Assembly (NCBI GenBank): GCA_028818385.1
Contig: JAPPNY010000172.1
Span: forward strand, 1 to 36,029
Source of the DNA: Spirochaetaceae bacterium
GTDB taxonomy: Bacteria > Spirochaetota > Spirochaetia > SZUA-6 > Bin103
Direction of reading: 5' to 3'
DNA length: 36,029 nt
The position numbers and the translations under genes are program-made. Of this stretch, positions 6,249-17,670 are shown piece after piece (position 1 is the first letter of the stretch; each line of letters starts with the position of its first letter). Under the pieces are notes generated by a model. It saw only the letters and a list, made by a program, of their open reading frames with translations, searched no databases and was not told the DNA's origin.

Positions 6249-6764
6249 ATGGATCCAAGAACGATGAGCCTGGGAACCGATCGCTGGCTGACCGACTCCC
6301 GCGTCTACAACCTGATCTGGCTGGGGCGCTGGATCGAGCGCGCCCAGAACGTCGCCCGCATGCTCCTGTGGGCGGCCGAGCACGAGGCGACCAACGACCT
6401 GCGGGACGTGCTCGGCATTGCCGCCGACATGCGCGGCATCACCGTGGCGGCCGACGATTCGGCGCTGGACGTGCTGTTGACCCGCGACAGCGGCGCATCG
6501 CTGCGCGGCTGCCTGGAGGCGGCCCGCTACAACGCCACCCACGTGGCCCCGGTCGAGGTGACCCGCATCGTCGGCACCGCAATCGAGACGCTCAACCGGC
6601 ACGACCCGGCCTTGTCGCCGGCCGACCTGGCGGCGCTGATGCGCAGCATCCTGGCCACGCTCGACGAGCTGCACGGCGCGGTCGAGGAAGCCTGGTTCCA
6701 CTCCGACGCGCTCTCCGAGGAAGAGGTCTACCGCCGCTTCGTCCAGCAACAACAGCAGCAATAG
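6249..6764 (+). CDS. Alpha-E domain protein, half-length
   Basis: The 171-residue product starts with the alpha-E signature VYNLIWLGRWIERAQNVARML (residues about 18-38, shown here without a break of function) and stays all-helical. Alpha-E (DUF403) proteins are usually about 310 residues, so this is roughly the first half of the family, or a compact variant. The C-terminus reads SEEEVYRRFV followed by six glutamines coded by CAA/CAG repeats, which looks like a slipped-repeat tail. It follows the transglutaminase gene by 32 bases, with AAGGAACGG upstream of its ATG, and completes the ATP-grasp/transglutaminase/alpha-E trio. A 39-bp stretch of its 3' end (6712-6750) occurs again at 13197-13235 with 36 identical bases. 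The second copy ends in RQRK and a stop rather than poly-Gln. Truncation here is possible. Confidence 0.72.
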   Translation: MDPRTMSLGTDRWLTDSRVYNLIWLGRWIERAQNVARMLLWAAEHEATNDLRDVLGIAADMRGITVAADDSALDVLLTRDSGASLRGCLEAARYNATHVAPVEVTRIVGTAIETLNRHDPALSPADLAALMRSILATLDELHGAVEEAWFHSDALSEEEVYRRFVQQQQQQ

Positions 6765-6798
6765 CAGCTCGCGACAATACCCTCTTTCGTACCCTTGA

Positions 6799-7860
6799 TC
6801 AGGAGTTACTACCCTCTTTCGCCAACACACGCCAACGAGCGCCGCGGCCGCGACCGCTGCACGTGACCTCGCCCGACCTCCGCATGTCAGCCAGGAGGCG
6901 ACGAATCCACTCGCGTCCGACCCCTGGACATGCGCGTTCCAGGTCCTGCAGGCGGAAATCTCCCGGCTGTGCGCGAATCGCGGCCAGAACCAGCGCCGCC
7001 TTGGCGCCACGCGGGGCCTGAACCTCTCCAACCCGTTCTTCGAGCTCTCGATAGCCGCGACGAACGATCGTGAGGGCGAAGTCGAGCCATGGCGTCAGTT
7101 CGTGCCTGCCGTCGTGCCAGCCTTGCGAGCTGAGATGCAGGCACTCGTAGTAGCGCTCCCGGACCTGCTCTACCAGGCGTTCGAGGCTCAGGTAGCGGCC
7201 GACCCGGTAGTCGTGTTGGTAGAGCGCCAGGAGGGTCAGCAGGCGTGACACGCGCCCATTGCCATCCCGGAATGGATGGATGCAGAGAAAGTCCAGCACG
7301 AGTGCGGCGATGGCGACCAACGGTGGGATGTGGTCCTGGTCGAGCGCGTGCCGGTAGCGGTGGCAGAGTTCCTTCACCGCGGCCGGCGTCTCCGCGGCCG
7401 GCGCGCAACGGAACCGCACCACCGGGGCGCGTCCGGGGTGCATCTCGACGATGTCGTTGTCGATCCGCTTGAACTGACCGGCGTCGCCACTGGCGGATTG
7501 GCAGAGGGCATGCAGGCGAAGCAGGGTGTCCGGAGTGATGGGAAGATCGGCGTAGCCGGAGTGGATGTCCTCCAACGCACGGCGATAGCCCTGCACCTCT
7601 TGTTCGGACCGATCGCGAGGACTGGATCGGCCAAGAACCAGCGCGTGCAAACGCTCGCGTCCGACCGTCACGCCTTCGATGCGATTGGATGACTCGGCGC
7701 TCTGAATGATGGCAGCGTCACGCAGTGCCTTGAGGACCTGCGGCGACTGGCGGGAGAACAGATCCTGTCTTCCCTTGGATTCCGCGATGTCGTTGAGCAG
7801 CCACGCGGTGCTCATCGGCAGTTGGTGATCGCGCAGTCGGTTGCCGCGAAACGAATTCAT
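6799..7860 (-). CDS. Fic family protein (AMPylase-type)
   Basis: The 353-residue protein has the full Fic motif HPFRDGNGRVSR (residues 195-206), whose His is the catalytic base for moving AMP, or another phosphate-containing group, onto target hydroxyls. An inhibitory-helix motif S-x3-E-G (SNRIEG, residues 58-63) lies in the N-terminal domain, so this is a self-inhibited class II Fic. A winged-helix-like region (about 285-345, with DLERACPGVGREWIRRLL) ends the protein. The N-terminus (LLNDIAESKGRQDLFSRQSPQV) is that of the widespread bacterial Fic_N group. ATG 7860 is chosen; a TTG lies one codon upstream and an ATG at residue 16. It converges on the alpha-E gene and is intact, unlike the decayed restriction genes just upstream of it. 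Targets are unknown. Confidence 0.9.
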   Translation of the reverse strand: MNSFRGNRLRDHQLPMSTAWLLNDIAESKGRQDLFSRQSPQVLKALRDAAIIQSAESSNRIEGVTVGRERLHALVLGRSSPRDRSEQEVQGYRRALEDIHSGYADLPITPDTLLRLHALCQSASGDAGQFKRIDNDIVEMHPGRAPVVRFRCAPAAETPAAVKELCHRYRHALDQDHIPPLVAIAALVLDFLCIHPFRDGNGRVSRLLTLLALYQHDYRVGRYLSLERLVEQVRERYYECLHLSSQGWHDGRHELTPWLDFALTIVRRGYRELEERVGEVQAPRGAKAALVLAAIRAQPGDFRLQDLERACPGVGREWIRRLLADMRRSGEVTCSGRGRGARWRVLAKEGSNS

Positions 7861-7899
7861 CAATCAGCGAGGGAATTCGAGGTCGCAGTCATTGCCTCG

Positions 7900-8849
7900 T
7901 CACCCCGCGGCCAGCGCGAAGCCGTGTTGTTGCTGTGTGAGGAAGTGGCCGAAGACCAGGTTCGACTTCACCGTGATCTCGTCCTCGAAGTACGACTCGG
8001 GCAATCCCGTTTCGTCGCCGTAGAGGAAGTCGAAGACGGTCTGCTTCACCTGATCGCACGTCGCAATCCCGTCAGCGTGTCCGTGAATCTCACCAGCTTG
8101 AGCTGTAACGGTGCCGACTTCATCCTTCTCTCCATCCGCCCTATTGAGCTCCGCCTCGATCTCTTCGATGGTGGGCAGACTGCCCTTCAGATCGTCTGGC
8201 AGGACGTCGACCAAGCGGGTCTCCCAGTCCGCGATGCCGAGGGGTTTGGCGAGGTCGCGCAGGGCGTACTCCACGACTATGCGGTCCTTGCCCTTGCAGA
8301 GCACCAGGCAAATGGTGGCGCGTCATCGGGGTGTCGCTGTCGCCGACCTCAGGCGGCACCTGCCGTCCGACGAAGGCGAATCCTGCCCCGTCTCCAGCAG
8401 GAACCGTTGAATGTGGTCAACGAGCCCCTTCTCCAGCTCCCGTTCCGTGCGCGGTTCGGCGGTGCCGAGGAAGTCGAATAGGTACGAGTTCTTGAAAACC
8501 TGCGTGGCCAGATCGGAGTCGGCCGTCGGCAGCGTCCGAGGGAAGTTTGGTGACGGTGCTGCCCTGACGCTCGTGCTGCCGGCTCTCGATCTGAACGGCG
8601 AGCACGTTGCGGCTCCAGCCCTCCTCACGAGCCTTGGCGGCGTACCAGAGCCGAACGCCCTCGTCGTCAATCTTCTCCAGCAAGGCGATGTTGTGGTACC
8701 AGGTGATTTGTGCAAGCACCTCTTGCACGACTTCGCGCTTGGGCTAGGCTGCGGCGAAGGCACGCATGTACTTGGGGTTGCGGGGCGAGAATCCCCGCAT
8801 GTCCGGGAACGCCGCCCGGAGATCATGCGAGAGGCGGTCGACGGTCCCG
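7900..8849 (-). pseudogene. Decayed DUF1016 (PDDEXK nuclease, YhcG type) with extra C-terminal tail
   Basis: Read across frames, this stretch gives VDRLSHDLRAAFPDMRGFS, PRNPKYMRAFAAA, a TAG stop, then PKREVVQEVLAQITWYHNIALLEK, REEGWSRNVLAVQIESR, a frame change, then FKNSYLFDFLG and LVDHIQRFLLETG, another frame change into FAFVGRQ, and finally CKGKDRIVVEYALRDLAKPLG to GSLPTIEEIEAEL. This order is that of DUF1016 nucleases. The block that should follow FAFVGRQ, with the FYIDLLFYH and ELK metal-site motifs, is missing, so the catalytic core is deleted. The tail from about 8150 to 7900 (TVFDFLYGDETGLPESY and onward) is not DUF1016 and recalls HsdR C-termini, though weakly. At least one nonsense codon, two frameshifts and the core deletion make it clearly dead. 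Confidence 0.75.
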
Positions 8850-9246
8850 GAGCGTCGTTGTCGAGCTCCTGGTACTCGGCCTTGGGCAGGGCGCCGCGCA
8901 GGGTCTCGTAGTCCTTCTCGATCTGCTCCATCGCATCGATGATCGCCTGCGCGCGGTCGGCGCCGTCAGGCAGGGAGACGAGATGATCGAACTGCGCTTC
9001 GGCGTGCAGGAAGATCGCGCCCTTCCGGGAGAAGTCCTCCTTGGTGAGTGCGCGTGGCCTGCCGGCGCGCCTCGGAAGGGAGGGCTCGATCTCGGCCTTG
9101 ACCTTGAGGAAGCGGCTGTAGGCGTGGCGCAGGAAGATCAGCCCCATCACGGGCAGGAAGTACTCGTTGCTCGCGAATGGGGAGGTGGCCCGCAGGTTGT
9201 CCGCGCTGGACCAGAGCCTCTTCTCGATTTCGCCGATGTGCTCCAA
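8850..9246 (-). pseudogene. N-terminal fragment of a type I methyltransferase subunit (hsdM')
   Basis: About 130 residues match the start of HsdM: IEKRLWSSADNLRATS, PFASNEYFLPVMGLIFLRHAYSRF, then ALTKEDFSRKGAIFLHAEAQFDHL and LRGALPKAEYQELDNDAP. The order and spacing are those of the HsdM N-terminal helical domain. It breaks off at about 8850, where a one-base frame shift joins it directly to the DUF1016 start (VDRLSHDLRAAF). The whole methyltransferase domain, including the SAM and NPPF motifs, is absent, so it cannot methylate. The first codon would be TTG at 9246. HsdM with HsdS and HsdR normally forms a type I restriction complex; neither partner is intact here. Confidence 0.72.
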
Positions 9247-9259
9247 CCGTGTCCTGCTC

Positions 9260-9488
9260 AGATTCCCGGATCCGTCGATTCGACGGTCTGGGTGGAGTCG
9301 CCTGGGATCTGGCTACCGCTGATGTCCATGGTATCTGTTCCGTCGGCTCCGTACGCCATGGCCGTCCACAGGCACCCGGCCAGCGAGTCCGTAATTGCTT
9401 GTCAGCGAGCGACCTGAAGCCGGTGTCGCGCTTGATGCGCAAGGTACACCGCGTTCTCGTTCCCGGACAACCAAGGCTCCTCCATCAT
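9260..9488 (-). pseudogene. Remnant of a helix-turn-helix (excisionase/AlpA-type) gene
   Basis: From ATG 9488 the frame reads MMEEPWLSGNENAVYLA; after a frame change it continues IKRDTGFRSLADKQL. This resembles the start of the small helix-turn-helix proteins (…EEPWLS…L-G-IKRDTVYKWI…) that often precede hsdM or DUF1016 genes. The rest is scrambled, ending with a stop near 9260. A second, shorter copy lies at 10200-10290. Both end in the same 18-base TCCGGGAATCTGAGCAGG. Confidence 0.5.
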
Positions 9489-9569
9489 GGCACTGATCAT
9501 CTGTCGTCCACCACACCCGACGTGAAGCACAGTCAGTCTATACCCCGGGCTGGACAGCGCGATCCAAGA

Positions 9570-9690
9570 GGCTCCGTGATTTGTGCAGCGGCCTGCTGCA
9601 CTATTTCGCGCCGGCCCGCGCCGCGGAACATGCGCGCATGTACTTGAGGTTACGCGGTGAGAATCCCGCATGTCCGAGAACGCTCCCGGA
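9570..9690 (-). pseudogene. DUF1016 fragment, copy A
   Basis: The minus strand encodes GFSPRNLKYMRA and then, after a frame change, REIVQQAAAQIT. These are consecutive parts of the DUF1016 nuclease N-terminal domain. Flanking DUF1016 sequence is missing on both sides. The DNA is similar to the matching part of the longer remnant at 8700-8800. Confidence 0.65.
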
Positions 9691-9720
9691 GGTCGTCCGA
9701 CCCATGGACTCAGACCAGAC

Positions 9721-10050
9721 ATGGCGAGAGCCCGGTTCTTCACAGATGAGCAGGTCCCAAATGCGGTCATCATGGGCCTTCGCCGCAGAGGCGTGGATGT
9801 CCTGACCGTTCCCGAAGCGGGAACGCTGGGAGCCTCGGACGGCGAGCAACTGCGACGGGGCGCGAGACGAAGGCCGGGTCATCTTCACGCAGGATGATGA
9901 ATTCCTGCGATTGGCGGCGACGGACTCCAGCCATGCCGGCGTCGTATATGCTACCAAGAACGTCCGATTGGACAGATCATCCGCGGTCTGATGCTGATCC
10001 GCGAGGTGCTGGAGGCCGGAGAGATGGCCGGTCACGTGGAGTTTCTGTGA
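9721..10050 (+). pseudogene. DUF5615 PIN-like toxin gene with two frameshifts
   Basis: The first frame reads ARARFFTDEQVPNAVIMGL, RRRGVDVLTVPEAGTLGASDGEQL, the start of a DUF5615 PIN-like protein with its D-E metal site in FFTDEQVP. Near 9857-9870 the frame shifts to RDEGRVIFTQDDEFLRLAA and HAGVVYATKNVR. Near 9969 it shifts again to QIIRGLMLIREVLEAG and EMAGHVEFL, stop 10048-10050. Put together, these three pieces give a full-length DUF5615 protein of about 110 residues, so the gene is recently broken rather than fragmentary. DUF5615 proteins usually pair with a DUF433 antitoxin just upstream; none is present here, the upstream DNA being a DUF1016 scrap on the other strand. Sequencing error could cause two indels, but the neighbouring decay makes true loss more likely. 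Confidence 0.72.
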
Positions 10051-10069
10051 GCCGGAGATCGACTGGAGC

Positions 10070-10170
10070 AGGGCCAGATTGCGGCGCCAACGAATCTGTG
10101 CAGCGGTGCGTTGCACGATTTGGCGATCCGGTCGAGCCGCGGCGAAGACGCTCATGCAGCCCTACGTCTC
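10070..10170 (-). pseudogene. DUF1016 fragment, copy B
   Basis: The minus strand encodes VFAAARPDRQIVQRTAAQIR, then WRRNLALLQS, which is the DUF1016 segment immediately after the PRN-KYMRAF block. It ends abruptly where the opposite-strand DUF5615 gene begins. Together with copy A and the longer remnant this makes three partial copies of one DUF1016 segment in 2 kb. Confidence 0.62.
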
Positions 10171-10199
10171 GCAGGGCCGCCTCCGGGAACCGTTTCTCT

Positions 10200-10290
10200 C
10201 TCCTGCTCAGATTCCCGGACTCGCCGATCCGCCGGTCCGGCCACTTGTAGACGGTCTCGCGCTTGATGACCGAATCGGCCGATCAAGTCG
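10200..10290 (-). pseudogene. Second helix-turn-helix remnant
   Basis: The minus strand reads IKRETVYKWPDRRIGESGNLSRR. IKRETVYKW is the recognition-helix region of excisionase/AlpA-type proteins. The middle of the gene is deleted relative to the copy at 9260-9488, but both share the terminal TCCGGGAATCTGAGCAGG (here 10202-10219). It overlaps the last few bases of the radical SAM gene. Confidence 0.42.
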
Positions 10291-12040
10291 TCGCTACCGC
10301 GGACCGGAAGGACGCTACCGCGTCGTCGATACCATCGGCGTGGAAGCGAAAGTCGGCCGGTATCGACCGGTAGCGTGAGTCCACGCGAGCCAGCAGCGCC
10401 TCCCTCCGGCCGTCGGACGCGTCCTCATTCGTCCCGGGACGCGAAACGGTCTCCCGGAACAGCGTCAGCTCGGCATCCAGGAATTCCTTGAACGCCTGGA
10501 ACATCTGCTGATGACGGGTGAACTTCTCGAAGTGATAACCCAGCGCCGCCAGGCGGATCGCCTCCGCCAGCATGGTGGGATGGTCCTTGGAGACCTTCGC
10601 GATGAACGTGCTGTAGGCAGGGATCTGACCGGGGGAAAGGCGCCCGCGCACCATCATCAGCGCCGGATAGACCTGGTGCCTGGCCAGGGACGGGCTCACG
10701 TGCGGCAGCGGCTTCAGGTGCTCGAACAAGGTCAGGCAGCGCTCGAAGTAGTTCTCGAGGGTGGGGTCATAGACCGTGGAATTCACCCGCAGGTATCCCT
10801 CGATCAGTTTCGCCGGGTCCATCTGCGGCACGAAGTTCAGGGTGGTCGTGCTGGTTCCCGCGGGCACGTCAAGGAGCCGGCCTTCCGCTTGCATCCGGTG
10901 GTAGAGGTCCGTTCCCTTCAAGGCGGTCAGCATCCCGACCAGCGCCATCGGAATGCCGGCGTCCTGAATGAACTGGATCTGGGAACCGAACACCCGCTCG
11001 TCATCTCCGTCCAGCCCCAGGATGAACCCGCCCATCACCTGCATGCCCTTGTGCTGGATCTTGCGCACCGCGTTCAGCAGGTAGTCCGGTTCGCGCGTGC
11101 TGATGTTCTGCGGTTTCTTGGTGATCGCCAGGGCTTTCGGGTTGGGCGTCTCGATGCCCAGGAACACGCCGTTGAAGCCGGCTGCGATCATCGCGTCCAT
11201 CACCGTGTCCATGCGCGCCAGGTTCACGCTCGCCTCGGTGAACAGCCGGAACGGAAACTTGTGCGCGCGCTGCCACTCGGCGACCACCGGCAGCAGCTTC
11301 AGGGCCTCGCGCTTGTTGCCTATGAAGTTGTCGTCGACCAGGAACAGGTAGCCGCGCCAGCCCAGCCGGTACAACGCTTCGAACTCCTCGACCATCTGCT
11401 CGGGCGACTTGGTACGCGGCACGCGGCCGTAGAGCTTGGTGATGTCGCAGAACTCGCAGTCGAACGGACAGCCGCGGGAGAATTGCACGCACATGGCGTG
11501 ATAGTCCGCCAGCTCGACGAGGTCGAAGCGCGGGATGGGCGTCCGCGTGACATCGGGTTTGCGCGGCTCGCGATACATCGGTTTGGCTCTGCCGGCTTCG
11601 AGGTCCTGCAGGAACCGGGCGAAGGTCTCTTCCGCCTCGTCCAGAACGAAGTGGTCGACGCCGGCGATCTCCTCGTGGCACGCGGTCGGATAAGGCCCGC
11701 CCGCGACCACGGGCACGCCGGCACGGTTGCACCGTTCGATCACCGTGCGCAGCGATTCCCGCTGCACGATCATGGTCGACGTGAACACCATGTCGGCCCA
11801 GTCGAGGTCGGAGTCCTCCAGGGGGGAGACGTTCATGTCGACGACCCGCAGGTCGTACTCCGGAGGGAACATCGCCGCGACCGTGAGCAGCCCGAGCGGC
11901 GGGAATGCGGCCTTTGCGCCGAGCAACTCCAGGGCGTAGTTGATGCCCCAATAGGAGGGCGGATGGTCGGGATAGACCAGCAAGGCATTACGCACGGCCG
12001 AGTTCCCGTGGCGTGAGTCCCGTTGTGAGACGTTCACCAT
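10283..12040 (-). CDS. B12-binding-type radical SAM protein with DUF4070-like C-terminus
   Basis: The 585-residue protein has an N-terminal B12-binding Rossmann-type domain (residues about 20-150; FPPLGLLTVAAMFP, VVDMNVSPL, VVAGGPYPTA). A radical SAM domain follows, with the cluster motif CPFDCEFC (Cys191, Cys195, Cys198). The C-terminal helical region (about 400-540) is like DUF4070. The usual cobalamin DxHxxG loop is not seen (D-x-N instead), so base-off cobalamin binding is uncertain. The architecture is shared with the hopanoid methylase HpnP group, but that group is broad and no substrate can be named. SAM-radical chemistry would occur in the cytoplasm. It follows the Cache-domain gene by 17 bases on the same strand, so the two are probably cotranscribed. 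The C-terminus runs into the gene graveyard at 10.2 kb. Confidence 0.82.
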   Translation of the reverse strand: MVNVSQRDSRHGNSAVRNALLVYPDHPPSYWGINYALELLGAKAAFPPLGLLTVAAMFPPEYDLRVVDMNVSPLEDSDLDWADMVFTSTMIVQRESLRTVIERCNRAGVPVVAGGPYPTACHEEIAGVDHFVLDEAEETFARFLQDLEAGRAKPMYREPRKPDVTRTPIPRFDLVELADYHAMCVQFSRGCPFDCEFCDITKLYGRVPRTKSPEQMVEEFEALYRLGWRGYLFLVDDNFIGNKREALKLLPVVAEWQRAHKFPFRLFTEASVNLARMDTVMDAMIAAGFNGVFLGIETPNPKALAITKKPQNISTREPDYLLNAVRKIQHKGMQVMGGFILGLDGDDERVFGSQIQFIQDAGIPMALVGMLTALKGTDLYHRMQAEGRLLDVPAGTSTTTLNFVPQMDPAKLIEGYLRVNSTVYDPTLENYFERCLTLFEHLKPLPHVSPSLARHQVYPALMMVRGRLSPGQIPAYSTFIAKVSKDHPTMLAEAIRLAALGYHFEKFTRHQQMFQAFKEFLDAELTLFRETVSRPGTNEDASDGRREALLARVDSRYRSIPADFRFHADGIDDAVASFRSAVATT

Positions 12041-12057
12041 GCGTCACCAGAACGCGC

Positions 12058-13050
12058 TCACTCTCCTCCTTCGCCGGAAAGGAAGATCCCGGAGCCGACG
12101 ATGAGCTTCTGATCGGAGTTCGGAACCGGGAAGCCCTTGGCGTAGCCGATCTTCGGAGAGCCGGTCTCCTCATCGCCTTCGACCGTCGGATCGTCGAAGT
12201 TGTACCTGAGAAACATGCCCTCCTCGTTCTCGCGCGCGCCGTTTATCATTTCGTGCACGAACTTGACGCCGTTCACGTCCACGCGATCCATGTTGACCAG
12301 CCTGCCCTCGAGATCGCTCTGCGTTGCGTGAAACAGGATGATGCCGGAGCCGCTGACGACCCACAGATAGATCGAACCTTGCTTCCAGTGTCCGCCTTCC
12401 TGACGAAACGTGTTCCGGACCGGAATCAGGCCGCGGAAGTTCTCGGACATCACGCCGATCTGGTAGGCCCTTGCCGCCTCTTCGACGAAGGCGATCAGCG
12501 TTTCCCGGTCCACGACCTCCGACGCGGTCACGGAAGGCTCAGGAAGATCGGCATAGGTGATCGGAACATGGGAGACGTCCTGGGCGTACCCACCGACCAG
12601 CACGAACGTCCTGCCCGTTATGCCCGACGTGTACTCGACGGCATAGGCCGTCTTCGGTCCGTCGACGTGGTATTCGACGAAGCCGCCGCCTGCTGCGGCG
12701 GTGGCGAGCAGCTCCGCGACGACCTTCAGCCCGCGCTCATCCTCGACGCCCATCAGGTTCCTGCTCTCCGCCGCGCGATCGTTCCCGTGAATGAAGGGGT
12801 ATCCGTTCTTCAGGAAGATCACGAGGAACATCTCCCCGGACTTCAAGTTGCCCTCCACCCCTAGCCGTTCCCTGAGCCGCGCTCCTTCGTTGACGTCCGT
12901 GATCGCCTCGATGAATTGCTTCGTTTCCTCGACAAATGCCTTGAGGCTGTCGCGGTCGGTGACATCGCCGGCCGTCGTGCGGGCATGTGCCGCAGCGCTC
13001 GCGAGGATCCCCAGCATCAGGACGCCAAGCAGGGACCGCATCTTCGTCAT
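12058..13050 (-). CDS. Secreted protein with two Cache domains
   Basis: From ATG 13050 the protein has 330 residues and a clear signal peptide (MRSLLGVLMLGILASAAAHA, residues 4-23). The mature part contains two similar Cache-type modules. The first covers about residues 30-165, with SGEMFLVIFLKNGYPFIHG. The second covers about 180-325, with GSIYLWVVSGSGIILFHA and FVHEMINGARENEEGMF. There is no later membrane helix or signalling domain, so it should be a free periplasmic or extracytoplasmic ligand-binding protein rather than a chemoreceptor. Upstream in-frame starts extend to 13134 but lie before the signal sequence; GGGAA precedes ATG 13050 at a usable distance. It is 17 bases upstream of the radical SAM gene on the same strand. 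Small-molecule binding is inferred from the fold; the ligand is unknown. Confidence 0.75.
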   Translation of the reverse strand: MTKMRSLLGVLMLGILASAAAHARTTAGDVTDRDSLKAFVEETKQFIEAITDVNEGARLRERLGVEGNLKSGEMFLVIFLKNGYPFIHGNDRAAESRNLMGVEDERGLKVVAELLATAAAGGGFVEYHVDGPKTAYAVEYTSGITGRTFVLVGGYAQDVSHVPITYADLPEPSVTASEVVDRETLIAFVEEAARAYQIGVMSENFRGLIPVRNTFRQEGGHWKQGSIYLWVVSGSGIILFHATQSDLEGRLVNMDRVDVNGVKFVHEMINGARENEEGMFLRYNFDDPTVEGDEETGSPKIGYAKGFPVPNSDQKLIVGSGIFLSGEGGE

Positions 13051-13140
13051 CGACAGATTCCCGCTTCTCATAGGCTCTGGATAGCACAGCACCCGCATCG
13101 TGTCGACTTCCTCGCGACCGGGAGATCGAGCCACCGCTGC

Positions 13141-13189
13141 AGGAACAGCCCCGGCACGAAGGCATGGGACACGACGGGATGGTCGGGCA
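13141..13189 (-). repeat. Displaced copy of the glgP 3' end
   Basis: These 49 bases match the last codons of glgP (15116-15164) at 45 of 49 positions, in the same orientation. The encoded peptide PDHPVVSHAFVPGLFLQ parallels GlgP's PDHPFLPHPFVPGLFLQ, but the stop codon is lost. The match stops sharply at 13189. Seven bases later a copied alpha-E 3' end begins. Confidence 0.9.
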
Positions 13190-13196
13190 CGGTAGA

Positions 13197-13243
13197 TCTC
13201 CGAGGAAGAGGTCTATCGGCGCTTCGTCCGGCAACGGAAGTAG
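13197..13243 (+). repeat. Displaced copy of the alpha-E gene 3' end
   Basis: Bases 13197-13235 match 6712-6750 in the alpha-E gene at 36 of 39 positions, same strand. The peptide is SEEEVYRRFVRQRK followed by TAG (13241-13243), while the parent reads SEEEVYRRFV and then poly-Gln. The match begins sharply at 13197. The MetE-like gene ends inside this copy on the opposite strand (stop at 13213), so its last residues are antisense alpha-E sequence. Confidence 0.9.
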
Positions 13244-14340
13244 CCGGGATCGGCGCGTGCCGTCTCCCGCAGCATACGCGCGGCCGCGACTTCTGCCGTC
13301 AGCTTGGCGTATACCTCGTCCATGGAGACGTCGGCGCCCGAGCCCGGTGCAAAGCCGCAGTCCGGGTTGAGGGTGATACGCTCCGGCGCGACGAATTGCA
13401 GCGCCGCTTCCACCCGCTGCACGATCTGAGCAGCGGTATCGATCTGCCCGGGCGTTACGCTGACGCAGCCGAGACCGATCTGCAGTTCCTCTCGCAGATC
13501 GCGCAACACCTGCATGTCGCCGGCCTCCGGAGTGGTGAACTCCAGCGTCAGGTGCTGCGCTTGCAGCCGATTGAGCTGGGCGACGATCGGCGCGTAGCCG
13601 CCGCGATGGCTGCGCTCACCGCGTGCACGCGCACCGGCGCGCCGACAGAGGTGCACGGCGGTCGTCACGTCCGCAGCCATGGCGTGATGACCGCTCAACA
13701 CCTGGTTCACCATGTCCACCGAGAAGTCGGCCGCAGCGTCGGGATCTTCGTAGCCGGCCCGGACGTCGGGATCCACGAACAGGCACAGGTGCGGGTCGTC
13801 GATCTGAATCACGTCCGCCCCGGCGTCACACACCAGTTCCACCTCGCGTCGCAGGATCGGCACGCAGTCGCGCACGAACTGCTCTCGCGTGGGATACGCC
13901 TGCGACGAGCGCTGCGCATCCCACATGCGTTGGCCGAGCAGCGCCGGTGCCGGCAACGTGGCTTTCACGGCACGCGACGTCACGCTCTTGAGAAACGCAA
14001 CCTCACGAGCGATGAACCCCGCCGCTTTGGGCGCCAGCCTGTCTACCACCACCGTCCATGGGCGACCGTCGGCAGGGTTGGCCGAAAGCTCGAAGCCGTG
14101 GGCCAGCTCTGCAATCACGCCGATGTAGGACCGGCGCCGCCACTCACCGTCGGTGACCACGTCGAGACCGGCGTGCTCCTGCATGGCGACGACGTAGCGG
14201 ACGGCGGCGTCCATCCGCGCGCCGTAGTCCTCCGCGGCAAGGGACCCGGAGGCACCGATGAGGTCGCGAACGAATTGTGGTCGCGGTACGGAACCTACCA
14301 CCGAAGTGGGAAACAGGAAGCGCTCGCGATTGTCACCCAC
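13213..14340 (-). CDS. MetE-like cobalamin-independent methyltransferase family protein
   Basis: From GTG 14340 the product has 375 residues, the size of the single-domain MetE C-terminal (UROD/MetE) family. Zinc ligands are visible: His230 and Cys232 in VHLCRR, and Cys328 in NPDCGFAPG. The block DVIQIDDPHL (residues about 177-185) corresponds to the IQIDEPAL strand. Full MetE makes methionine from homocysteine and methyl-folate, but it is about 750 residues. Stand-alone C-terminal proteins often use other methyl donors or thiols, so the substrate is open. The start overlaps the stop of the upstream nucleotidyltransferase gene (14333) by 8 bases. A GTG at 14349 is an alternative, and residues further upstream in the long frame are antisense-like and not real. 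The last six codons lie in the duplicated alpha-E 3' end, so the C-terminus was reshaped by that rearrangement. Confidence 0.8.
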   Translation of the reverse strand: MGDNRERFLFPTSVVGSVPRPQFVRDLIGASGSLAAEDYGARMDAAVRYVVAMQEHAGLDVVTDGEWRRRSYIGVIAELAHGFELSANPADGRPWTVVVDRLAPKAAGFIAREVAFLKSVTSRAVKATLPAPALLGQRMWDAQRSSQAYPTREQFVRDCVPILRREVELVCDAGADVIQIDDPHLCLFVDPDVRAGYEDPDAAADFSVDMVNQVLSGHHAMAADVTTAVHLCRRAGARARGERSHRGGYAPIVAQLNRLQAQHLTLEFTTPEAGDMQVLRDLREELQIGLGCVSVTPGQIDTAAQIVQRVEAALQFVAPERITLNPDCGFAPGSGADVSMDEVYAKLTAEVAAARMLRETARADPGYFRCRTKRR

Positions 14341-15109
14341 GCGCGCCACCGCCGTCCCAGTGCGCGCGCGCCAGCTCGAAGTCCTGCTGGGTGTCGATCT
14401 CCATGTACTCTCCGGGCGTGTCGACGTGCGCGATTGGCACGCCCTGTTCCAGCATATCCTGGTACAGGTGGATGAGGTAGGCCTTCTCGAATGACGGCGC
14501 CTCTCGGAAGCTGGCACCGGCGTAACGGCGCCGGCAGCGATGATAGTGCTCTCTCAAGAGCGTGGCTCCCGAGCGGGAGAACTTCGAGACGCCGGTGAAC
14601 TCGCCGTACGCGGCAGACTCCCCAATGTCGCGATGGATGCGCGTGATCCGTCCATCAGCCGCGATTACCTTCTCGGCGTCGTCCGCCGGGTGGTCAGTGC
14701 GGTATCGGTAGCGGTCGGACCACTCCGTGTCCACGACCAGAGCGATGTCGTGGCAGTCGTTCATCACCCGCCGAATGACCTCCGGGGTAAACAGGATGTC
14801 GGAGTAGCAGCAGATGAAGGGCCCGTCCATCAGATCCTCGGCGTGCATCAGGGAGGCAAGGATGTTGTTGCGCTCCCAGTTGGCGTTGGTCCGGAACGTG
14901 AGCCGCGGATACGCTGCGCGGACGACGTCGATCCGGTAGCCGCCGATGAAGCAAACATCGTCGATGCCGTTGTCCCGGAAGGCCGCCAGCACCCAGTCGA
15001 GTATGCGCTGTCCGCCCACCTCGGCGAAGCACTTGGGCGTGTTCTCCGTGGCAGGCATCAAGCGACTGCCGCGCCCGGCTCCGATGATGATGCCGCGCGT
15101 GCGTGTCAT
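14333..15109 (-). CDS. Nucleotidyltransferase of the choline/phosphonate cytidylyltransferase-like group
   Basis: This 258-residue GT-A fold enzyme opens with IIIGAGRGSRLMPATENTPKC, the nucleotide-binding loop of sugar- and choline-phosphate nucleotidyltransferases (G-x-G-x-R, then P-K). Then come ILDWVLAAFRDNGIDDVCFI, the metal-site strand FICCYSDILFTPEVI and LVVDTEWSDRYRYRTDHP, with AEKVI and YGEFTGVSKFS further on. These later blocks recall LicC/PntC-type CTP-using enzymes rather than glucose-1-phosphate enzymes. It would activate a phosphorylated headgroup or sugar in the cytoplasm. The ATG at 15109 overlaps the glgP stop as ATGA, so translation should be coupled to glgP. Its own stop overlaps the MetE-like start. 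Longer starts (to 15205) run into glgP and are rejected. A link to glycogen (ADP-glucose synthesis) is possible but not favoured by the motifs. Confidence 0.78.
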   Translation of the reverse strand: MTRTRGIIIGAGRGSRLMPATENTPKCFAEVGGQRILDWVLAAFRDNGIDDVCFIGGYRIDVVRAAYPRLTFRTNANWERNNILASLMHAEDLMDGPFICCYSDILFTPEVIRRVMNDCHDIALVVDTEWSDRYRYRTDHPADDAEKVIAADGRITRIHRDIGESAAYGEFTGVSKFSRSGATLLREHYHRCRRRYAGASFREAPSFEKAYLIHLYQDMLEQGVPIAHVDTPGEYMEIDTQQDFELARAHWDGGGARG

Positions 15110-17670
15110 CCCTGGAGGAACAGCCCCGGCACGAAGGGATGGGGCAGGAAGGGATGGTCGGGCATCACGCGCACCGTCGCGGCCACCCTCCCCGTCCTTT
15201 GGCACACCGCGCTGGCACGGTAGGTCGCCGAGTCGCCGTGCCGTTCGATCAGCTCCATCGGCGTGCTCTGGCCGTCGACGATCTCGTCGTCGCCCGGCTG
15301 CAGGTCGATGCTGCCGGGCAGCGCGCCGTGATAGAGCGCCACCTGCACGTCGGACGGCTCCAGTCCGCCCAGCCGGATGCGCGCGGTGACGTCCAGCGAG
15401 TCGCCCACCTCAAGCGTGGCAGAGCTGTCGGAGTCGAGCTGCTCGACCGCGATCCCCGGCCAGTGGTGGTGCAGCCGCTGCAGGTGGCCGGCGAGCTCCA
15501 CGGCGTCCCGGTACCCCGAGTCGCGCAGCCGGCGGGCGTGCGCGAGCGCCGGCTCGTAGAGGTTGCCGTGGTACTCGGCGACCATGCGCTGCGCGCTGAA
15601 GTGCTCGCCGATCACGGTCATGGAACGCCGCATCTTGGCGATCCACGCGCGCGGCAGGCCGTCGATGCTGCGGTCGTAGAACATGGGGATGACCATGTGC
15701 TCCAGCTCCGCGAACACGGCGTCGGCCTCCAGCTCGTCCTGGATGTTCTCGTCCTGGTAGGTCTCGCCCGAGCCCACGGACCAGCCGATGTCGGGGCTGT
15801 ACGCCTCGTCCCACCAGCCGTCCAGAGTGGACACCATCAGCGATCCGTTGACCGACGCCTTCATGCCGCTGGTGCCGCTGGCCTCGTGCGGGCGGCGCGG
15901 GATGTTGAGCCACACGTCGCACCCCGCGACCAGGTAGCGCGCCACGTTGATGTCGTAGTCGTCCAGGAAGACCATCCGGCTGCGCAGGTCGTGCTCGGCC
16001 GCGAACTGGACGATGCGCCGGATCATCTCCTTGCCCTGGTGATCGTTGGGGTGCGACTTGCCGGCAAAGATGATCTGCACCGGCTGCTCGCGGCTGCTGA
16101 GCAGCCGCACCAGGCGCTCCGGTTGCCGGAAGAGCAGGCCCGGGCGTTTGTAGCCGGCAATCCGGCGCGCGAAGCCGATCGTCAGAGCATCCGGGCGCAG
16201 CGCCACCTCGGCGGCCCGCAGATCGGCTTCCGCGGCCCCTTCGCGCCGCATCTGCGCCACGATGCGCCGGCGGGCGAACCAGATCACCCGTTCGCGGCGC
16301 CGCTCGTGCGTCCGCCACAACTCCTCGTCGGCGATGTTGTCCACCTGCCGCCACACCGCCACCTCGGGAGCGTGCTTGGCCACCGCCGGCCCCAGGTAGC
16401 GCACCAGCAGCTCCTGGACGTCGTGCGAGATCCAGCTCCGCAGGTGGACGCCGTTGGTGATGTGGCAGATCGGCACCTCGTCCGCCGGCACGCCCGGCCA
16501 CAGGCTGCGCCACATGCGGCGCGACACCTGGCCGTGCAGCTTGCTGACCCCGTTGCAGTGCGCGGCCAGGCGCAGCGCGAGCGGCGTGAGCCCGAACTGG
16601 CCGTGCGCGTCGCCGTCGTGCCCGATGCGGCCCAGCGACAGGAACTCGTGCTCGTCCAGCCCCAGGGCGGAGCGCAGCACTCTGGCCTGGTCCAGCACCA
16701 GGTGCGGATCGAACGTCTCGTTGCCGGCCGGCACCGGTGTGTGGGTGGTGAACACCGTGGTGCTCCACACGGCCTGCCGCGCCTCGAAGTAGCCCATGCC
16801 GTGCTCGTGCATCAGCTCACGGACCCGCTCCAGGGCCAGGAACGCCGAGTGCCCCTCGTTCATGTGGGTCACCGCGACCGGGATCTCCAGGGCGCGCAGC
16901 GCACGAATGCCGCCGATGCCCAGCAGCAGTTCCTGGCGCAGGCGCATGCGGCGGTCCGACACGTAGAGCTGACCGGTGATCTCACGCGTCGACGGGTCGT
17001 TGGCGTCGATGTCGGTGTCGAGCAGATAGAGCGGCACGCGTCCCACCCGGACGCGCCAGATGCACGCATGCGCCCGTTCTCCGCCCAGATCCACGGTAAC
17101 CGTCACCGGCTCGCCGTCTGCAGAAGTGCACAGCATGAGTGGCATGTTGTAGAAGTCGTTGGCCGGAAAGCTCTCGAGCTGGTGGCCGTCCATGGTGACG
17201 CGCTGGCGGAAGTAACCGGTGCGGTAGAGCAGCCCGACGCCCACGACCGGCAACCCCAGGTCGGAGCAGCTCTTCAGGTGGTCGCCGGCCAGCACCCCCA
17301 GGCCGCCGGAATAGATCGGCAGGGTGGCGTCCAGGCCGAACTCCATGGAGAAGTAGGCGATCATGGCGTCCCGCGGGCCCGAGTACCACGGATCGGCCTG
17401 CAGGTAGTCGTGGTAGTCGGCGATGACCTGGTCCATGTGGGCGAGGAATGCCTTGTCCCGCTCCATCTCGTGGAGCCGCTCCTGCGGCAGCTCGCTGAGC
17501 AGCCGTAGAGGGCTCTGCTGGGCCTGCTCCCATGCGTCGGCGCCGAACCGCATGAACAGGCGGATGGCGTCGAAGTGCCAGGTAATCCAGAAGTCGTGAG
17601 CCAGCTCGGCCAGGGGCGCCAGGCGCTCCGGGAGGTGGGGCTTGACGGTAAAGGTGAGTCGATTCGCCAT
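15106..17670 (-). CDS. glgP: Alpha-glucan (glycogen) phosphorylase
   Basis: This 854-residue GT35 enzyme releases glucose-1-phosphate from glycogen or maltodextrin ends. The N-terminal DUF3417-type region (residues 1-110; HFDAIRLFMRFG) and the block AYFSMEFGLDATLPIYSGGLGVLAGDH place it in the bacterial long alpha-glucan phosphorylase group. NEGHSAFLALERV and HTPVPAGNETF are further family blocks. The pyridoxal-phosphate lysine lies in EASGTSGMKASVNG (Lys about residue 602). ATG 17670 follows CGAGGG at a good distance. The gene is divergent from glgX, which acts on the limit dextrin it leaves. Its stop overlaps the nucleotidyltransferase ATG. Its last 49 coding bases are copied at 13141-13189. 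The enzyme is complete, with all expected motifs. Confidence 0.95.
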   Translation of the reverse strand: MANRLTFTVKPHLPERLAPLAELAHDFWITWHFDAIRLFMRFGADAWEQAQQSPLRLLSELPQERLHEMERDKAFLAHMDQVIADYHDYLQADPWYSGPRDAMIAYFSMEFGLDATLPIYSGGLGVLAGDHLKSCSDLGLPVVGVGLLYRTGYFRQRVTMDGHQLESFPANDFYNMPLMLCTSADGEPVTVTVDLGGERAHACIWRVRVGRVPLYLLDTDIDANDPSTREITGQLYVSDRRMRLRQELLLGIGGIRALRALEIPVAVTHMNEGHSAFLALERVRELMHEHGMGYFEARQAVWSTTVFTTHTPVPAGNETFDPHLVLDQARVLRSALGLDEHEFLSLGRIGHDGDAHGQFGLTPLALRLAAHCNGVSKLHGQVSRRMWRSLWPGVPADEVPICHITNGVHLRSWISHDVQELLVRYLGPAVAKHAPEVAVWRQVDNIADEELWRTHERRRERVIWFARRRIVAQMRREGAAEADLRAAEVALRPDALTIGFARRIAGYKRPGLLFRQPERLVRLLSSREQPVQIIFAGKSHPNDHQGKEMIRRIVQFAAEHDLRSRMVFLDDYDINVARYLVAGCDVWLNIPRRPHEASGTSGMKASVNGSLMVSTLDGWWDEAYSPDIGWSVGSGETYQDENIQDELEADAVFAELEHMVIPMFYDRSIDGLPRAWIAKMRRSMTVIGEHFSAQRMVAEYHGNLYEPALAHARRLRDSGYRDAVELAGHLQRLHHHWPGIAVEQLDSDSSATLEVGDSLDVTARIRLGGLEPSDVQVALYHGALPGSIDLQPGDDEIVDGQSTPMELIERHGDSATYRASAVCQRTGRVAATVRVMPDHPFLPHPFVPGLFLQG

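What the first reader, a model, noticed from the sequence alone, without database searches (positions are those of the whole stretch)
13141..13243. A tandem-duplication scar joins copies of the glgP and alpha-E 3' ends
The 49 bases at 13141-13189 match the glgP 3' end (15116-15164, 45/49). Seven bases on, 13197-13235 matches the alpha-E 3' end (6712-6750, 36/39). Both are in parental orientation, and both matches end sharply on the side facing each other. That is the junction expected if the interval from inside alpha-E (6712) to inside glgP (15164) was once tandemly duplicated: right edge of copy one joined to left edge of copy two. The two halves now carry different cargo: Fic, restriction remnants, radical SAM and Cache on one side; MetE-like and nucleotidyltransferase on the other. 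So alpha-E and glgP were probably convergent neighbours, and this junction is a repeated landing or exchange site. The scar also supplied the C-terminus of the MetE-like protein.
Basis: partly seen in the sequence, partly recalled or inferred. Interest (0 to 1): 0.78.

Follow-up and report, generated by a model that had tools for sequence, protein, structure and literature searches.

The report
Duplicated convergent gene ends with cargo
In an uncultured spirochaete, the facing tail ends of two neighbouring genes appear to have been joined into a small repeat by an error-prone DNA join, different genes now sit in each copy, and one of them takes its last few amino acids and its stop signal from the backwards reading of a dead gene tail; it is a clear genome scar of an ordinary kind.

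Summary
13141-13189 copies the glgP 3' end (45/49) and 13197-13235 the alpha-E 3' end (36/39); the best of 100 shuffled windows gave 32/49 and 25/39. The copies lie in interlocked order, which one tandem-duplication-type join gives. I refine the join: the seven 'spacer' bases also come from glgP (13186-13204 vs 15214-15232, 17/19), after a 53-bp deletion between GGCA repeats, and the join sits at TCGCCGAG/TCTCCGAG. A misassembly is unlikely: a 98%-identical MetE homologue (P0124) carries the same alpha-E-antisense C-terminus with its own substitutions. The four family genomes held encode Ku; three have LigD_N. Cargo X is a patchwork with eroded hsd genes; cargo Y (NTP-MetE) is a unit elsewhere in a relative. 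The event type is known. Open: a small duplication before both insertions, or a one-sided illegitimate exchange between two cargo variants. 'Repeated landing site' rests mainly on this window.

The parts
6249..6764 (+). alpha-E gene (PF04168), native copy
   Evidence: Pfam E 6.7e-12; 97% identical homologues P0244, P0245
6712..6758 (+). native alpha-E 3' stretch, source of the right half of the scar
6768..6775 (+). CTCGCGAC, left copy of a possible 8-bp direct repeat flanking cargo X; CTCGCGA also lies in the L001 gap
   Evidence: (474 of 20,000 random draws share an exact 8-mer); weak
6777..13110 (.). cargo X: Fic, eroded type I restriction (hsd) genes with a YhcG-type nuclease piece, B12-binding radical SAM, Cache-domain protein. 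Left edge firm, right edge uncertain (between 13088 and 13136)
   Evidence: homology to G003:C148 starts at 6777 and Cache homology to G003 ends at 13088; Pfam
6799..7863 (-). Fic-domain protein
   Evidence: PF02661 E 7.4e-18; 77% DNA identity to G003:C148
7899..10268 (-). eroded hsd region: collinear pieces of a longer region of G002/G003 with internal deletions, then a second diverged partial copy
10283..12040 (-). B12-binding radical SAM protein, 89-91% DNA identity to G002/G003
12058..13134 (-). Cache-domain protein, 84% DNA identity to G003 (homology 12053-13088)
13111..13118 (+). CTCGCGAC, right copy of the possible 8-bp repeat
   Evidence: weak
13137..13189 (-). copy of the glgP 3' end (= 15112-15164); no glgP stop codon
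   Evidence: 48/53 identical; translation
13186..13204 (-). further glgP-derived sequence (= 15214-15232) beyond a 53-bp internal deletion; its end is the imperfect 8-bp homology where glgP meets alpha-E
   Evidence: 17/19 match
13197..13243 (+). copy of the alpha-E 3' end (= 6712-6758), stop codon TAG at 13241-13243
   Evidence: 36/39 to native over 13197-13235, 41/47 to L001
13213..14349 (-). MetE-like protein (PF01717); its last nine residues and TAG stop read the alpha-E copy in antisense
   Evidence: GTG start at 14349 inferred from homologue P0124
14333..15109 (-). nucleotidyltransferase (NTP_transf_3); its ATG overlaps the glgP TGA (ATGA)
15106..17670 (-). glgP (alpha-glucan family phosphorylase), native copy
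15112..15232 (-). native glgP 3' stretch that was copied; 15165-15217 is missing from the copy

Best explanation
The scar is the join of an illegitimate, short-homology tandem duplication. In the window's lineage alpha-E (+) and glgP (-) were convergent neighbours with a short gap. A break or replication slip joined glgP at 15225-15232 (TCGCCGAG) to alpha-E at 6712-6719 (TCTCCGAG), giving two tandem copies of a unit of roughly 200-230 bp: alpha-E tail, gap, glgP tail. The outer copies kept both genes intact, so the inner tails were free to decay: 53 bp were lost between GGCA repeats and the glgP stop was lost. Cargo X came to lie in the first gap and cargo Y (nucleotidyltransferase plus MetE-like) in the second. 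Y became the downstream part of the glgP operon (ATGA overlap). MetE reads past the point where relatives' MetE ends and into the dead alpha-E tail in antisense, which gives it nine residues and a stop codon. Shown: the copies, their order, the empty neighbourhood in one relative, the antisense C-terminus and its presence in another relative's protein. Inferred: the enzyme route (Ku/LigD end joining or slippage), the size of the first duplication and the order of events.
For: Interlocked order in parental orientation. Empty convergent site in L001, 50-bp gap. glgP origin of the spacer and 7-of-8 homology at the join. In the 53-bp glgP comparison 8 sites group scar with native against L001, 2 group scar with L001 and 3 are unique to the scar, so the copy is younger than the split from L001. 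Decay: 4 of the 5 scar-native differences change an amino acid, the three scar-unique ones all do (my reading), one hits L842, invariant in 19 aligned glgP proteins, and the stop is lost. P0124 ends ...ARADPGYFCDWTKRR against window ...ARADPGYFRCRTKRR*, and native alpha-E antisense gives TKRR* in the window and L001. Ku in 4 of 4 family genomes and 6 of 26 of the order; LigD_N in 3 of 4.
Against: No intermediate (duplication without cargo, or with one cargo) was found. Two insertions into two tiny gaps is a coincidence unless the site is favoured. The sequence beside the two inner tails is no more alike than chance (7242 of 20,000 random draws score as well), so two full copies of the gap are not shown. 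The alpha-E three-way count is not clean: 1 site groups scar with native, 2 group scar with L001, 5 are unique to the scar. The ancestral state rests on one relative: of 21 genomes (G001 and 20 relatives) only G001 has this alpha-E. The window's own genome is not held, so Ku and LigD are known only from relatives.
Confidence: 0.55

Rival explanations
1. One-sided illegitimate exchange between two relatives (homology-facilitated illegitimate recombination). Lineage A had alpha-E-X-glgP and lineage B had alpha-E-Y-glgP. A piece of B that began in its alpha-E tail entered A, recombined by homology inside glgP, and its other end was joined at the short homology to A's glgP tail. One event gives the interlocked structure with two cargos.
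For: Explains in one step why the two halves carry different cargo. The join shows short GC-rich homology. The class of event is published (PMC3240628, start of abstract seen). Cargo genes seem to move among these relatives: radical SAM is 89-91% identical to G002/G003, where glgP DNA is 76%.
Against: Needs two lineages with separate insertions at the same gap, neither of which was found. The scar glgP tail lacks a stop codon, so the stop must have been lost after the event. Radical SAM is also fairly conserved between G002 and G003 (89%).
Confidence: 0.3
2. Tandem duplication of the whole loaded interval (6-8 kb), followed by loss or replacement of one cargo copy.
For: Interlocked tails fit a duplication of any size.
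Against: X and Y show no BLAST match to each other at E <= 1e-3, so one cargo copy would have to be removed completely and replaced.
Confidence: 0.08
3. Site-specific integration into gene 3' ends: two islands integrated at the alpha-E and glgP 3' ends, each leaving a displaced 3' end.
For: Each pair of direct repeats taken alone looks like an island between two copies of a gene's 3' end. The Fic protein has a weak, below-cutoff match to 'mobile mystery protein B' (25.6 bits, cutoff 124.4).
Against: Two independent integrations would leave the displaced alpha-E end to the left of the displaced glgP end; the window has the opposite, interlocked order. No integrase or transposase family among the ORFs of X and Y scanned (Pfam; PHROGs for ten ORFs of 6799-10250).
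Confidence: 0.04
4. Assembly chimera of two strains with different cargo.
For: Sharp facing edges are what a misjoin would give; no genome is held for the window, which may be metagenomic. No reads could be examined.
Against: P0124, a 98%-identical homologue from other sequence, carries the alpha-E-antisense MetE tail with different residues (CDW for RCR). The glgP tail has lost its stop codon and an invariant leucine, so it is not a working glgP end. The join holds extra glgP sequence beyond a deletion.
Confidence: 0.03

Closest known systems
Short-homology (illegitimate) tandem duplication joins in bacteria (e.g. Salmonella, PMC3411829; E. coli, PMC11111574; passages read)
   Same: Novel join with short direct homology; right edge of copy one fused to left edge of copy two; parental orientation
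   Different: Old and fixed rather than a laboratory duplication; only the join tails are recognisable because different genes fill the gaps. The confirmed Salmonella duplication joins had 11-27 bp of homology, but that screen selected for longer homology; here it is 7 of 8 bases
Homology-facilitated illegitimate recombination (PMC3240628, start of abstract only)
   Same: One homologous and one illegitimate end would give the same product in one event
   Different: No donor or recipient lineage identified here
Genomic islands inserted at gene 3' ends (attL/attR; recalled)
   Same: Direct repeats of gene 3' ends flank cargo
   Different: Interlocked order, no integrase found
Genes extended past a lost stop codon into neighbouring sequence (PMC3887535, listing and abstract start only)
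   Same: MetE-like gene reads on into sequence that was not its own and stops at a latent stop
   Different: The captured sequence is the antisense of a dead copy of the alpha-E tail

Membership tests
Illegitimate tandem duplication join | Two segments in parental orientation with the downstream parental segment placed upstream | tested here: met
   glgP tail 13137-13204 lies left of alpha-E tail 13197-13243
Illegitimate tandem duplication join | Parental segments were neighbours in the ancestor | tested here: met
   L001: convergent neighbours, 50-bp gap; one relative only
Illegitimate tandem duplication join | Short or no homology at the join | tested here: met
   TCGCCGAG / TCTCCGAG, 7 of 8 bases
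Illegitimate tandem duplication join | Two full copies of the duplicated unit | tested here: inconclusive
   Only tails remain; the gaps hold different cargo, and the gap remnants are not significantly alike
Homology-facilitated illegitimate recombination | Donor allele joined by a homologous crossover on one side | not testable with these tools
   No relative with alpha-E-Y-glgP DNA could be fetched
Integrase-mediated 3'-end island | Integrase gene in or beside the island | tested here: not met
   Pfam scans of the main ORFs of X and Y and PHROGs scans of ten ORFs of 6799-10250
Integrase-mediated 3'-end island | Displaced ends in nested order | tested here: not met
   Order is interlocked
Ku/LigD end joining as the route | Ku and LigD encoded | tested here: inconclusive
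   Ku in 4 of 4 and LigD_N in 3 of 4 family genomes; the window's own genome is not held

The most novel reading that the evidence does not exclude
The gap between alpha-E and glgP is a recurrent exchange site in these spirochaetes. The scar records a single one-sided illegitimate exchange between two relatives that each carried different cargo there, and the antisense tail it gave to the MetE-like enzyme has been kept because it works as part of the protein.
Probability: 0.2. Interest if true: 0.5.

Novelty: new member of a known kind. Interest (0 to 1): 0.3.

Why it matters
It is a well-preserved fossil of how cargo can gather between convergent genes: an empty site in a relative, a short-homology join, two different sets of inserted genes, decay of the inert tails, and a neighbouring gene that takes a stop codon from the antisense of a dead gene tail. 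In a lineage whose relatives encode Ku and LigD it could help tell how often end joining, rather than mobile elements, builds gene islands. The event type itself is well known, so the interest is moderate.

Tried and rejected
Misassembly was considered and judged unlikely on P0124 and the decayed glgP tail; no reads were available. Dispersed repeats: 26 genomes of the order searched with the 108-bp scar gave only G001's two native ends and one 24-base match in G021. Integrase islands: disfavoured by order and by lack of integrase hits. An 8-bp target-site duplication around X (CTCGCGAC at 6768 and 13111) was tested: 474 of 20,000 random draws of stretch pairs share an exact 8-mer (draws under 200 bp apart were skipped but stay in the 20,000), and a score test gave 947 of 20,000, so it is only suggestive. 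Likeness of the sequence beside the two inner tails: not significant (7242 of 20,000). Likeness of the L001 gap to the window's pieces: not significant on scores (466, 1094 and 2531 of 5,000). A terminator hairpin in the L001 gap: z -0.97, no terminator-like site; in 6600-15300 of the window 2 terminator-like sites against 4.0 expected, no promoter-like site. A plasmid search of 13100-15250 found nothing. A shared contig length (25069) of P0006 and P0154 was taken as a possible glgP-MetE link and dropped: P0154 is a distant homologue without the tail. Of 120 alpha-E homologues listed I read 18; none ends in the scar's FVRQRK, but P0255-P0257 (68-70%) end FVRQ...; since P0124's tail implies Q there, the window scar's R looks secondary. 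Five of the 18 (P0246, P0252, P0254, P0259, P0268) are truncated or frameshifted towards the C-terminus, a weak hint of variable downstream sequence that cannot be checked without DNA. Literature: listings were seen; passages of PMC3411829 and PMC11111574 were read; PMC3240628 and PMC3887535 only as the start of the abstract. I did not search for an earlier description of this locus.

Full report
What was checked. The window carries alpha-E (6249-6764, +) and glgP (15106-17670, -) with 8.3 kb between them. Self-BLAST extends the glgP copy to 13137-13189.

Ancestral arrangement. A search of genome contigs with a 19-sequence glgP alignment found 27 loci, two of them above 50% identity: L001 (titled uncultured Spirochaetia bacterium, 86%) and L002 (Spirochaetaceae bacterium, 72%). 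In L001 the alpha-E operon and glgP are convergent and separated by 50 bp, with no cargo. Of 21 genomes searched with alpha-E (G001, which is the L001 genome, and 20 relatives) only G001 has it at E <= 1e-5, so the ancestral state rests on one relative.

The join. The copies sit in parental orientation but in interlocked order: X, glgP tail, alpha-E tail, Y. One tandem-duplication-type join gives this. The seven bases between the reported matches belong to a 19-base stretch (13186-13204) that matches glgP 15214-15232 at 17/19; none of 33,332 other window 19-mers tested does as well in glgP 15165-15400, and 52 of 20,000 random spacers do. The simplest reading is that the glgP copy once ran to about 15232, lost 53 bp between two GGCA copies, and was joined to alpha-E at TCGCCGAG/TCTCCGAG.

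Age and decay. In the 53-bp glgP comparison 8 sites group scar with native against L001, 2 group scar with L001 against native, and 3 are unique to the scar. In the 47-bp alpha-E comparison the counts are 1, 2 and 5. The glgP part places the copy after the split from L001; the alpha-E part does not decide, being dominated by changes unique to the scar. The glgP copy reads on without its stop codon. Four of its five differences from the native end change an amino acid, and one replaces a leucine (L842) that is invariant in 19 aligned glgP proteins, as expected of a dead copy.

Misassembly is unlikely. The MetE-like protein ends RETARADPGYFRCRTKRR*, where the last nine residues and the stop read the alpha-E copy in antisense. 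P0124, 98% identical, ends RETARADPGYFCDWTKRR; its W is what the window's native alpha-E antisense frame gives. Of nine MetE homologues whose sequences I read, out of 120 listed, only P0124 has this tail; the 82% homologue P0125 ends differently, and G003's MetE ends soon after the conserved part...LLRRSP*. P0124 stands for a cluster of 57 member sequences, of which only the representative was seen. No reads were examined.

Cargo. X is a patchwork: Fic (77% DNA identity to G003), collinear pieces of a longer hsd region of G002/G003 with internal deletions, radical SAM (89-91% to G002/G003) and Cache (84% to G003). G002 and G003 are 76% identical to the window in glgP DNA, so radical SAM has probably moved between lineages, although it is also fairly conserved between G002 and G003 (89%). 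Radical SAM and Cache are adjacent in G003 too, but in the opposite order. X is somewhat poorer in G+C (about 0.60-0.67 in 500-base windows) than the alpha-E operon and glgP (mostly 0.67-0.73). Y (NTP-MetE) occurs as one block at G003:C149:7315-9111, 74% identical. The nucleotidyltransferase ATG overlaps the glgP TGA, and MetE overlaps the end of the nucleotidyltransferase, so Y looks translationally coupled to glgP.

Mechanism. Ku is encoded in 4 of 4 genomes of the family and 6 of 26 of the order, LigD_N in 3 of 4. That makes end joining possible in this lineage but does not show it; replication slippage would leave the same join. At three deletion junctions of the hsd remnant the flanking BLAST blocks overlap by 5 bases at one (8333-8337) and abut or lie 2 bases apart at the other two (8064/8065, 8850/8853), so short homology is not a constant feature there. 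Bacterial duplication joins with short homology are documented (PMC3411829, passages read; PMC11111574, passages read).

What stays open. A small duplication followed by two insertions (0.55) and a one-sided illegitimate exchange between lineages with different cargo (0.3) predict the same window. They differ in relatives whose DNA could not be fetched here. The 'repeated landing site' idea is reasonable but rests on X and Y in this one window and on weak hints from truncated or frameshifted alpha-E homologues.

Verdict. A real, well-resolved scar of a known kind, with a pleasing side effect (an antisense-derived protein end and stop codon). Interest 0.3.

Noticed in passing
10283-13134; L075 2661-5538: Radical SAM and Cache genes are adjacent in the window and in G003:C110 but in the opposite order, on the same relative strand, as if permuted by a duplication and loss or by a circle.
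   Followed up: partly
8703-10268: Two diverged partial copies of an hsdM-like stretch lie in tandem (8703-8830 vs 9576-9700, 76%; 9252-9291 vs 10201-10240, 85%).
   Followed up: partly
10289-12002: Radical SAM gene is 89-91% DNA-identical to G002/G003 although glgP DNA is 76% identical: probable transfer between lineages.
   Followed up: partly
14333-15109: Nucleotidyltransferase start overlaps the glgP stop (ATGA), so acquired cargo looks translationally coupled to a resident gene.
   Followed up: no
alpha-E homologues P0246, P0252, P0254, P0259, P0268: Five of 18 alpha-E homologues read are truncated or frameshifted towards the C-terminus; P0252 stops at ...DTLSEE, the place of the scar's short homology.
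   Followed up: no
G001-G026: Ku is present in all four genomes held of this spirochaete family but in only 6 of 26 of the order.
   Followed up: no
6799-7863: The Fic protein has a weak, below-cutoff NCBIfam match to 'mobile mystery protein B'.
   Followed up: no
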